A stretch of DNA of 13,856 bases from the NCBI GenBank assembly GCA_028689175.1, contig JAQTWS010000006.1, forward strand, positions 1-13,856. The letters run 5' to 3'. Position 1 is the stretch's first letter; each line of letters begins with the position of its first letter. Positions 358-13,856 of the stretch are shown here, piece after piece. Made by a program: the position numbers and the translations under genes. The stretch comes from Minisyncoccota bacterium (GTDB lineage: Bacteria > Patescibacteriota > Minisyncoccia > Minisyncoccales > Minisyncoccaceae). Below the pieces are notes generated by a model. It saw only the letters and a program-made list of their open reading frames with translations, was not told the origin of the DNA and did not search any database.

Positions 358-431
358 TGGGTATGCCTGGACTCGAACCAGGGACCTCGTCATTATCAGT
401 GACGCGCTCTAACCAGCTGAGCTACACACCC
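358..431 (-). tRNA. tRNA-Ile (anticodon GAT)
   Basis: Cloverleaf with acceptor GGGTGTG/CATACCC, D arm GCTC/GAGC, anticodon stem CGTCA/TGACG with loop CTGATAA (anticodon GAT) and T stem CCTGG/CCAGG around TTCGAGT. No CCA is encoded. The first ten bases of the tRNA also encode the last codons and the TAG stop of the methyltransferase gene upstream, so RNase P cleavage at the tRNA 5' end would remove the stop codon from the message. Confidence 0.96.
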
Positions 432-1015
432 GTCTTTTTTAAAACAAACATTTTTCTTTTTACTGGATTAAAGAAATATTTTTTATCTTTTGAATAAATT
501 AATTTTAATCCCAACTTTTTAAAAATATTATTCCATTCTTGTTCATTATAAAACTTTGCAGGAATACTGTTCTTTAAAAAAAATAAATCGTATAATCTTC
601 CGTGAAAATAGCAATAAATCTTCCCCAAAAACCCCTCGTTTAAATCTTCATAAACAATAATGTGCTTTTTTGTTATTCTTCTTGCCTGTTTTAAAATACT
701 TTCCAAATCTCCTGTGTGATGAAGCACGTAACTTATTAAAACCACGTCAAATTCATTATCCGAAATAAAAGACAAATCTTCGCCATCGTATATTTTCAAA
801 GAAACATCAACCACTCTCATGTCAACTATATCTACCCCTTCTACTTTTGTTTTAAACGTTTTTTCTATTTGTTTTGCTATAATTCCTGATCCGCACCCTA
901 AATCTAACACTTTGTCTCCTAAAGATATGTATTTTTTAAAATCATTACACATCTTTTTTGCCTCATGCCTATAAAACGATTTAAATAACCTGTATTGCAA
1001 ATGGCCTTTTTTCAT
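422..1015 (-). CDS. Class I SAM-dependent methyltransferase inside the rRNA operon
   Basis: 197 residues with a Rossmann-type methyltransferase core. The SAM-binding motif I VLDLGCGSG lies at residues 36-44, an acidic residue for the ribose (VDIVD) near 61-65, and a motif IV-like strand EFDVVLISYVLHH at 88-100, as in the Methyltransf_11 group. Residues 130-197 are less conserved, rich in aromatic and basic residues, and may set the substrate. The substrate cannot be read from the sequence: rRNA, small molecule or lipid are all possible. The gene lies between 16S rRNA and tRNA-Ile. Its ATG is 11 bases after the 3' arm of the 16S processing stem, and its TAG stop is inside tRNA-Ile. No promoter or clear SD is seen, so it is probably read from the rRNA transcript and released by RNase III and RNase P. 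That would tie its expression to ribosome synthesis. Confidence 0.85.
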   Translation of the reverse strand: MKKGHLQYRLFKSFYRHEAKKMCNDFKKYISLGDKVLDLGCGSGIIAKQIEKTFKTKVEGVDIVDMRVVDVSLKIYDGEDLSFISDNEFDVVLISYVLHHTGDLESILKQARRITKKHIIVYEDLNEGFLGKIYCYFHGRLYDLFFLKNSIPAKFYNEQEWNNIFKKLGLKLIYSKDKKYFFNPVKRKMFVLKKTGV

Positions 1016-4620: not shown

Positions 4621-4872
4621 CAAATGCTCAACTTTAAATACTCTTCCCAAGCTGCAACGATCATCGCTACAAAAGAATAAATCCCCATTCTTTTCTCTAA
4701 AAGTTCCTTGTAGCTCCTTAAAATAGCCTCCATAAACTTCCCAAACAGAATGCCTGTTTTTAATCAATAATTGGACAATATCTTTTTTTGTTAAATTTTT
4801 TTCCAATGTCTCATCATCAATCTCAAGTCCCCATTTATATCCGTCGCTAAAGAAGCGTACATTGAGCCTCAT
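4597..4872 (-). CDS. Small protein of unknown function
   Basis: 91 residues from ATG 4872 (95 from ATG 4884). It looks like a cytosolic alpha/beta protein: amphipathic N-terminal strand RLNVRFFSDGYKWGLEI, a helix (KKDIVQLLIKN) near the middle, then strands and two cysteines (CSDDRCS) before a C-terminal helix. I do not recognise the family. The later start is chosen because a strong promoter has its -10 at 4888-4893, which puts the transcription start near 4881, after the first ATG. If transcription began at 4884 instead, the message would be leaderless with the longer protein. No SD precedes either start. A hairpin spans the stop codon. Confidence 0.65.
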   Translation of the reverse strand: MRLNVRFFSDGYKWGLEIDDETLEKNLTKKDIVQLLIKNRHSVWEVYGGYFKELQGTFREKNGDLFFCSDDRCSLGRVFKVEHLEGVLASC

Positions 4873-4887
4873 GTAAAATCCCATGAT

Positions 4888-4916
4888 ATAATAGCCTATA
4901 TCAAAATTTATGTCAA
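4888..4916 (-). promoter_or_regulatory. Strong promoter of the 91-95 residue gene
   Basis: Minus-strand TTGACA (4911-4916), 17-base spacer, TATTAT (4888-4893). The best -35 and a near-consensus -10 make this one of the clearest promoters in the window. The spacer contains a second ATTTTGA-like copy of the -35 flank, a short direct repeat. Confidence 0.75.
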
Positions 4917-4931
4917 AATTTTCACTTTAAT

Positions 4932-4972
4932 AAAAAAAGGGGGGGTATTTTAACGTCCATTTTATCCCCCGG
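4932..4972 (-). terminator. Terminator after the 67-72 residue gene
   Basis: Minus strand: CCGGGGG (4972-4966), an AT-rich loop of about 20 bases, then seven C's (4945-4939) followed by seven T's (4938-4932). Seven G's in a row on the plus strand is unusual in such AT-rich DNA. It lies about 50 bases after the stop codon at 5025. Confidence 0.65.
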
Positions 4973-5024
4973 ACATAATATAAATAAGTTACAATTACCT
5001 GTTTAAAAAGATAAATCTTCAACC

Positions 5025-13244: not shown

Positions 13245-13336
13245 TTTTTTACATGTATTCATGATACACTGAACTTGAAGACTTATCTTCTTCATTATTT
13301 TAACACTTTTATCCCCTTTAAAAAGATACCCCACTT

Positions 13337-13361
13337 GGCATTTTTCTAAAAGAAAAATGCC
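13337..13361. repeat. Perfect hairpin/cruciform downstream of the variable region
   Basis: GGCATTTTTCT (13337-13347) and AGAAAAATGCC (13351-13361) form a perfect 11-bp inverted repeat with a 3-base loop. Neither strand has a U-tract after it, so it is not a standard terminator. It lies 23 bases past the stop of the FGE-like gene. DGR target genes carry such a short-loop hairpin just downstream of the variable region, where it aids retrohoming. The rest of 13245-13384 holds no gene I can see. Confidence 0.7.
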
Positions 13362-13384
13362 CTATCAGATTATCAGAATTTTAT

Positions 13385-13856
13385 TTACCTAGCGCACCGA
13401 AACCCAATGTTGGTGTACGTGCCCGCAGGCGAGACGGTCAAACTCAGAGCGAAGACCCCGGCAGACGCGCCATCGCTCCAATGCCCGCCGCGTAGAAACG
13501 CACGGTTTGAAGTATAAATAGTATCATAATATATTCCCCCAACTCCGTTTGACCTAGTAAGCGTGTTATCTTTGGGACCAATCTCACTATATGCTAAACC
13601 ATTTCCCCAATCTGTTACATTTTTAATTTCTCCCGGCCAATATCTTCCGGTTGGTTTCATATCTGCTTGTGTAGGAATTTGAGCATCCACCCATTCCCAG
13701 ACATTTCCGGCAAAGTCCCAAATTACTTCTCCATTGCTTAAAGTATGAGTTCTTTTGTTTATTCCTGATAATGGATCAGTGCCGTTCATTGCTGCTGAAG
13801 AATCTGAATTTCCACGATTCAGAACCGTTCCACTCCAGTTTGAAGAAACTGACTCA
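13385..13856 (-). CDS. FGE-sulfatase/C-type-lectin-fold protein, 5' end off window; probable DGR target
   Basis: The frame is open to the right edge, so only the last 156 residues are seen. The fold is that of formylglycine-generating-enzyme-like proteins: SNWSG near the left end, THTLSNGEVIWDFAGNVWEWV (in two parts, GEVIWDFAGN and VWEWV), and the end RAFLRGGHW...NIGFRCAR. In Patescibacteria such proteins are often exported surface proteins; the N-terminus that would show a signal is missing here. The lectin-like loop at the C-terminus is the part that DGRs vary to change ligand binding. The first two thirds are AT-rich like the neighbours, but the last ~117 bases jump to about 62% GC. The gene stands alone, in front of secE, with no clear terminator. 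An ATG at 13789 is internal and not the true start. Confidence 0.85.
   Translation of the reverse strand, partial: ESVSSNWSGTVLNRGNSDSSAAMNGTDPLSGINKRTHTLSNGEVIWDFAGNVWEWVDAQIPTQADMKPTGRYWPGEIKNVTDWGNGLAYSEIGPKDNTLTRSNGVGGIYYDTIYTSNRAFLRGGHWSDGASAGVFALSLTVSPAGTYTNIGFRCAR
13388..13504 (-). other. Probable DGR variable region (VR)
   Basis: By hand count 75 of the 120 bases at 13391-13510 are G or C, far above the surrounding sequence. The framework residues RGGxW, AGVFALxL, SP and IGFRCAR alternate with positions whose codons can all be derived from AAY by changing only the two A's: CAT, AGC, GAT, TCT, AGT, ACC and also GTC, GGC, TAC. Codons at framework positions contain few A's, so they would be safe from adenine mutagenesis. 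The last 21 bases before the stop (13388-13408), ending GGTGCGCTAGG, are in the position of the IMH site that fixes where retrohoming starts. The template repeat and reverse transcriptase are not in the window. Confidence 0.7.

What the first reader, a model, noticed from the sequence alone, without database searches (positions are those of the whole stretch)
13388..13510. Variable region of a diversity-generating retroelement
The 3' end of the FGE-like gene is a GC-rich island with a fixed framework (RGGxW, AGVFALxL, IGFRCAR). Between these are positions whose codons nearly all end in C or T and could come from AAC or AAT by substituting only the two A's. This is the signature left by adenine-specific mutagenic retrohoming, and FGE/C-type-lectin proteins of Patescibacteria are known DGR targets. 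The gene would thus encode a rapidly varied binding protein.
Basis: partly seen in the sequence, partly recalled or inferred. Interest (0 to 1): 0.85.

Follow-up and report, generated by a model that had tools for sequence, protein, structure and literature searches.

The report
Hypermutated end of pilin-like gene
The end of this gene in a tiny Patescibacterium is a target of a mutation-making retroelement found on another contig of the same genome, and the gene most likely makes a pilus-linked surface protein whose binding face keeps being rewritten; such systems are known, but the scattered, pilin-like targets are of some interest.

The parts
13385..13855 (-). 3' part of the DGR target gene (156 codons and stop; 5' end cut by the contig end); FGE/C-type-lectin-like domain with the VR at its C-terminus
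   Evidence: closest listed homolog P0028 (364 aa, prepilin motif) 88% identical over all 156 residues
13388..13502 (-). variable repeat (VR), 115 nt, ten AAY-type codons
   Evidence: matches TR C24:711-827; 14 of 21 differences at TR adenines
13388..13405 (-). G+C-rich 3' end of the VR, place of the presumed initiation site of mutagenic homing (IMH); role inferred from position only
   Evidence: sequence; IMH role not tested
13318..13387 (-). stop codon and 70-nt tail conserved behind the three VRs
   Evidence: window against C16 67 of 71 and against C24 62 of 67 aligned bases identical; beyond it 44 of 98 and 51 of 93
13337..13361 (-). hairpin, 11-bp stem and 3-nt loop, 26 nt downstream of the VR; presumed target-site hairpin, a terminator role is not excluded
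   Evidence: sequence; same hairpin behind the C24 VR, none behind the C24 TR

Best explanation
The window carries a remote target of a chromosomal DGR. Shown: a cassette on contig C24 of the same assembly (end of a VR gene, Avd, TR, unbroken RT), VRs on three contigs that match this TR, adenine-biased substitution, and a shared tail with a hairpin behind the VRs. Inferred from the known mechanism of the BPP-1 element: the TR is transcribed, RT with Avd copies it with random bases opposite adenines, and the cDNA replaces the VR from its G+C-rich 3' end. Inferred from full-length relatives: the protein is an exported type IV prepilin-like subunit that carries an FGE-type C-type-lectin domain whose ten varied residues form its binding face. 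The DGR thus makes variants of a pilus- or membrane-linked binding protein, plausibly for contact with host cells or surfaces. The window VR was probably last written from a template that differs from the present C24 TR at six bases.
For: RT and cassette; Avd NF033474 99.6 bits against a cut-off of 80, RVT_1 78.6 against 29.6. RT against solved structures: best 8ub7, E 1.3e-56 (that 8ub7 is the BPP-1 RT is recalled). Adenine bias: C24 VR 10 of 10, window 14 of 21, C16 12 of 20 differences at TR A's (p 4e-8, 7e-7, 4e-5). Window and C16 VRs agree at 87 of 90 non-A positions and differ at 18 of 25 A positions, while the genes upstream agree at 193 of 348 aligned bases with many gaps. Window against P0028. 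Homolog pairs with 98-100% identical upstream 170 residues (P0073/P0080, P0094/P0099, P0003/P0004) differ at 8, 8 and 7 of 10 AAY sites and at 3, 2 and 0 of 25 sites without A. Model of the C16 target (mean pLDDT 85.2): best chain by Z TaqVP 20.4. Prepilin motif over cut-off in the C16, C74, G004 and G010 targets; 66 of 120 listed homologs show it by pattern.
Against: Against the only assembled TR 7 of the 21 window differences are not at A (67% at A; C16 60%), less than usual: of 70 pairs in the order, chosen at 70% or more, 1097 of 1192 mismatches are at A. The six shared bases that explain this come from the two VRs themselves, and no such second template was found in the assembly. The assembly is in 100 contigs with 5.45% contamination, so cassette and window could come from different strains. 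No prepilin peptidase (PF01478) was found in this genome, though 15 of 21 family genomes have one. The window gene's own N-terminus is not in the assembly at that place. No reads and no activity data.
Confidence: 0.88

Rival explanations
1. The window VR is a leftover: it was diversified by an earlier or lost template and the present C24 cassette no longer rewrites it, for instance because of the base changes near the VR's 3' end.
For: Six non-A differences from the TR are shared with the C16 VR, three of them within the last seven bases of the VR. In Treponema denticola SP32 a remote VR fits another strain's TR (19 of 21 at A) and was read as a leftover (PMC4891356 section 11).
Against: The non-A framework is still 108 of 115 minus A-site changes compatible with the TR, the hairpin is intact in the window, and P0028, the closest listed homolog, has Leu at the site where the window has Thr, so the same target elsewhere seems to have been written from a CTG-type template like the C24 TR.
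Confidence: 0.3
2. Binning artefact: the C24 cassette and the window belong to different, closely related strains, so the window genome may have another DGR or none.
For: Contamination 5.45% and 100 contigs; template mismatch.
Against: Window and C24 tails agree at 62 of 67 aligned bases; own-genome searches gave one matching TR and one unbroken DGR-type RT. Even if true, the window VR remains a DGR VR.
Confidence: 0.12
3. Ordinary divergence of a lectin-like gene family under positive selection, without a retroelement.
For: Binding faces of surface proteins often vary; FGE-type paralogs exist.
Against: Differences fall at template adenines at DNA level with third bases kept; a TR, RT and Avd are present; near-identical homolog pairs differ mainly at AAY sites.
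Confidence: 0.01

Closest known systems
Treponema denticola DGR with TvpA-type FGE targets (PMC4891356, passages and section 11 read)
   Same: One RT/TR cassette, several target genes, some remote from it, FGE-type lectin fold, a remote VR that fits a different TR type
   Different: TvpA-type targets; a prepilin N-terminus was not looked for there by me; the TvpA chain 2y3c comes second by Z (14.1)
Bordetella phage BPP-1 DGR (PMC3240598, abstract and section 10 read)
   Same: Avd, TR, RT; VR with downstream hairpin; gene order VR, avd, TR, RT (the order in BPP-1 is recalled)
   Different: Chromosomal here; the hairpin here has an A+T-rich 11-bp stem and 3-nt loop, while the phage pattern is a 7-10 bp G+C-rich stem with a 4-nt GRNA loop; spacing 26 nt lies within the 4-34 bp given there
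Thermus aquaticus DGR variable protein TaqVP, 5vf4 (PMC6328139, passages read)
   Different: The target family here adds a prepilin-type N-terminal helix
Patescibacterial (CPR) DGRs of Roux et al. 2021 (PMC8144416, passages and section 9 read)
   Same: Cellular DGR of Patescibacteria
   Different: That paper says clade 2 (CPR) targets typically have no recognisable transmembrane or other domain and that remote targets were out of reach of its method; here prepilin and FGE domains and remote VRs are seen. Whether this RT belongs to clade 2 was not tested

Membership tests
Diversity-generating retroelement | Reverse transcriptase | tested here: met
   C24:1020-2042, 340 aa, unbroken, RVT_1 78.6 bits, YMDD in the sequence; placement among DGR RTs by a tree was not done
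Diversity-generating retroelement | Accessory Avd | tested here: met
   C24:330-671, NF033474 99.6 bits over the cut-off of 80; PF22296 78.8 over 40
Diversity-generating retroelement | TR near the RT, matching the VR | tested here: met
   C24:711-827, between Avd and RT
Diversity-generating retroelement | TR-VR differences at TR adenines | tested here: met
   10 of 10 for the C24 VR, 14 of 21 for the window, 12 of 20 for C16; the last two are lower than usual
Diversity-generating retroelement | Downstream hairpin at the VR | tested here: inconclusive
   Present behind window and C24 VRs, weakened behind C16, in 4 of 4 FGE-type pairs of the family with enough flank (L014, L037, L039, L040) and behind none of their TRs; in the order 25 of 67 VRs, 33 of 67 TRs, 6 of 67 stretches upstream of VRs, 0 of 67 shuffled
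Diversity-generating retroelement | Mutagenic retrohoming takes place | not testable with these tools
   No reads, no culture
C-type-lectin DGR variable protein, FGE subtype | Fold | tested here: met
Type IV prepilin-like protein | Prepilin N-terminal motif | tested here: inconclusive
   Met in C16 and C74 and in P0028; the window gene itself lacks its 5' end
Formylglycine-generating enzyme | Catalytic cysteines | not tested
   Only the domain match and fold were examined

The most novel reading that the evidence does not exclude
In this group of Patescibacteria one DGR keeps a scattered family of prepilin-anchored lectin-like subunits variable in trans, marked by a shared hairpin tail, and targets pass from one template to another over time, so that the cell shows a changing repertoire of pilus-linked binders for contact with its host.
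Probability: 0.35. Interest if true: 0.7.

Novelty: new member of a known kind. Interest (0 to 1): 0.5.

Why it matters
Roux et al. 2021 left open whether the DGR targets of the Candidate Phyla Radiation lack membrane anchors or only lack recognisable ones, and state that remote targets were invisible to their method (PMC8144416). Here a set of such targets has a recognisable prepilin anchor and VRs on other contigs than the cassette. If the pilus link holds, it ties targeted hypermutation to an organelle thought to serve contact between these ultra-small cells and their hosts, and gives a concrete protein to test.

Tried and rejected
Ordinary paralog divergence was rejected on the adenine bias and the homolog pairs. 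A rule that hairpins mark VRs across the order was not supported: 25 of 67 VRs against 33 of 67 TRs; 3 of 70 pairs were dropped for short flanks. A rule that DGR targets of the order are prepilin-like was not supported: 4 of 70 pairs (59 of them with a complete 5' end) show the motif by pattern. A second template was sought in the assembly and not found. Overlap of C74 (5' half of a prepilin-FGE gene) with the window or C24 was sought and not found. The Avd gave no solved structure at E 0.1. Prepilin peptidase was not found in this genome. The second TR-like stretch on C86 has no second copy in the assembly, the other four matches having E 0.197 or worse.

Limits of the counts. One search listed 92 Avd places in 67 of 247 genomes at E 1e-10 (24 of 247 over the family's cut-off); 90 of the 92 were examined, in 89 loci (80 fetched fetched earlier), and 68 of 89 gave a TR-VR pair (70 pairs) with at least 70% of mismatches at A. 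Pairs under 70% were dropped, so that count leans towards DGRs. In one search, 20 of the 120 listed homologs did not fit the ungapped 38-residue pattern and were left out; 120 were the best of 452. 991 of 1000 residues at AAY sites can be reached from AAY by changing the two A's, but so can 83% of upstream residues, so that figure is weak. One P0028 residue at an AAY site (Lys) cannot come from AAY by A changes alone. The corrected count of 14 of 15 uses a template inferred from the same two VRs and is not independent.

Papers. 'diversity-generating retroelement' with 'prepilin': 0 papers in the held library; with 'pilin': 10 listed, of which I read passages in two: PMC6642488 mentions putative pilin structures linked to DUF1566 targets, so a pilin link is not new in print; PMC10221324. 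Search for 8UB7: 0 papers. Paul et al. 2017 (Nat Microbiol) is not held and was not seen.

Full report
What is there. The window is one whole contig (C100) of a genome of 586,034 bases in 100 contigs. It carries 16S rRNA and three tRNAs and housekeeping genes, most on the minus strand (I read them as ribosomal proteins S2 and L11, EF-Ts, NusG, GatB and others by recalled motifs, not by a search). At its right end a minus-strand frame of 156 codons runs off the contig. The last 115 nt before its stop are the most G+C-rich stretch of this length in the window (63%). A genome of the same genus, G004, has a contig of 71312 bases with an RT 75% identical to ours; JAQVLF010000001.1, Candidatus Paceibacterota bacterium STF1_103, has the same length and identity, so the window comes from that group.

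The machinery. The own genome has two places with reverse transcriptase. The one on C24 is a DGR cassette: VR at 118-234, at the end of an FGE-type frame cut by the contig start; Avd at 330-671; TR at 711-827, between genes; RT at 1020-2042, unbroken. The window VR as query found itself, the C24 TR, the C24 VR and a third VR on C16.

Adenine bias. Of the 115 TR bases 25 are A. Differences at A: C24 VR 10 of 10, window 14 of 21, C16 12 of 20 (chance 4e-8, 7e-7, 4e-5). Of the window's seven non-A differences one is private and six are shared with C16. Templates of several relatives carry some of these bases, such as GGCGC or ACACG, so either the C24 TR has changed or there is a second template, not assembled. 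With the six bases put in, the window has 14 of 15 and C16 12 of 14 at A, a figure that is not independent. P0028, closest to the window protein, has Leu where the window has Thr at one of these sites, which fits a change of template within this target.

Rewriting outlasts gene divergence. Window and C16 agree at 193 of 348 aligned bases upstream of the VR (138 gap positions) and at 44 of 98 beyond 70 nt downstream, but at 87 of 90 non-A positions in the VR and 67 of 71 in the tail, while 18 of 25 A positions differ. Repeated copying from one template and a kept tail would leave this; a recent conversion of the block followed by mutagenesis is possible too.

Relatives. In the genus 3 of 6 genomes have TR-like matches; in the family 11 of 21 have a related RT at E 1e-20 and 9 of 21 match a family TR, G008 and G009 also on a second contig. 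In the order 67 of 247 genomes have Avd. A protein search with residues 70-322 of the C16 target gave 452 homologs, 120 listed. In the 100 that fit, AAY sites have mean entropy 3.06 bits and sites without A 0.69 (AAY against all others p 2e-6). The window fragment and P0028 differ at 6 of 118 upstream residues and at 9 of 10 AAY sites (p 4e-9).

Target protein. The C16 target has a prepilin motif and an FGE domain, both over their cut-offs; so have the targets of G004 and G010. C74 ends in the 5' half of another such gene, which may belong to the window gene, to the C24 gene or to a further one (no overlap). P0028, 88% identical to the window fragment over its whole length, is a 364-aa protein with the motif. 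The model of the C16 target (mean pLDDT 85.2, low at the N-terminus and residues 31-70) has a long N-terminal helix followed by the lectin domain. By Z the best chain is TaqVP, 20.4; TvpA (14.1) and Mtd (13.6-13.8) follow, tied with CalU17, PvdO and FGEs at 12-13.6. C74 also carries a PilB/GspE-type ATPase (T2SSE 378.5 bits), and 25 further places of the genome match the prepilin N-terminus at E 6e-6 or better. Against a working pilus system: no prepilin peptidase was found here, though 15 of 21 family genomes have one.

Hairpin. The window has an 11-bp stem with a 3-nt loop 26 nt behind the VR (sequence); the same one follows the C24 VR, its 10-bp core the G004 VR, and other 13-bp ones the VRs of G007 and G010; none follows these TRs. 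Behind the C16 VR it is weakened. In BPP-1 such a hairpin is needed for efficient homing (PMC3240598 abstract). Its loop and stem here do not fit the phage pattern (section 10), and across the order the signal is not specific.

Verdict. The kind is known. The less usual parts are the prepilin-type anchor and the signs of a second or former template.

Noticed in passing
L015 (contig C86) 12087-14204, same as L002 256-2373: A second DGR-like locus: a gene broken by 100 N, an AAC-rich TR-like stretch ending in FRCVR and stop, and an opposite RT frame with a single in-frame TGA at a place where relatives would have Gly (recalled motif); TGA also ends 7 of 46 frames counted, so it is a stop here.
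   Followed up: partly
L118 (TR 4830-4973) and L124 (TR 4891-5010): In two loci of the order one TR is matched by two VR genes side by side.
   Followed up: no
L168 (G019) and L175 (G051): DGR targets with a prepilin N-terminus and a Fib_succ_major domain instead of FGE, so the prepilin anchor occurs with two kinds of variable domain; in L168 the Pfam motif is just under its cut-off (20.9 against 21.2), the NCBIfam one over it.
   Followed up: partly
L023 (G001), L044 (G008), L038 (G007:C42): RT frames of some relatives hold stop codons, which suggests repeated decay of these DGRs.
   Followed up: no
window 422-1015: A methyltransferase-like frame (name from recalled motifs) lies between the 16S rRNA gene (1130-2658) and tRNA-Ile (357-431), all on the minus strand, and overlaps the tRNA by 10 bases.
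   Followed up: no
window 13856, C24 base 1, C74 base 4391: Three contigs of this assembly end inside target genes of this family, as if the assembler broke at these repeated, variable genes.
   Followed up: no
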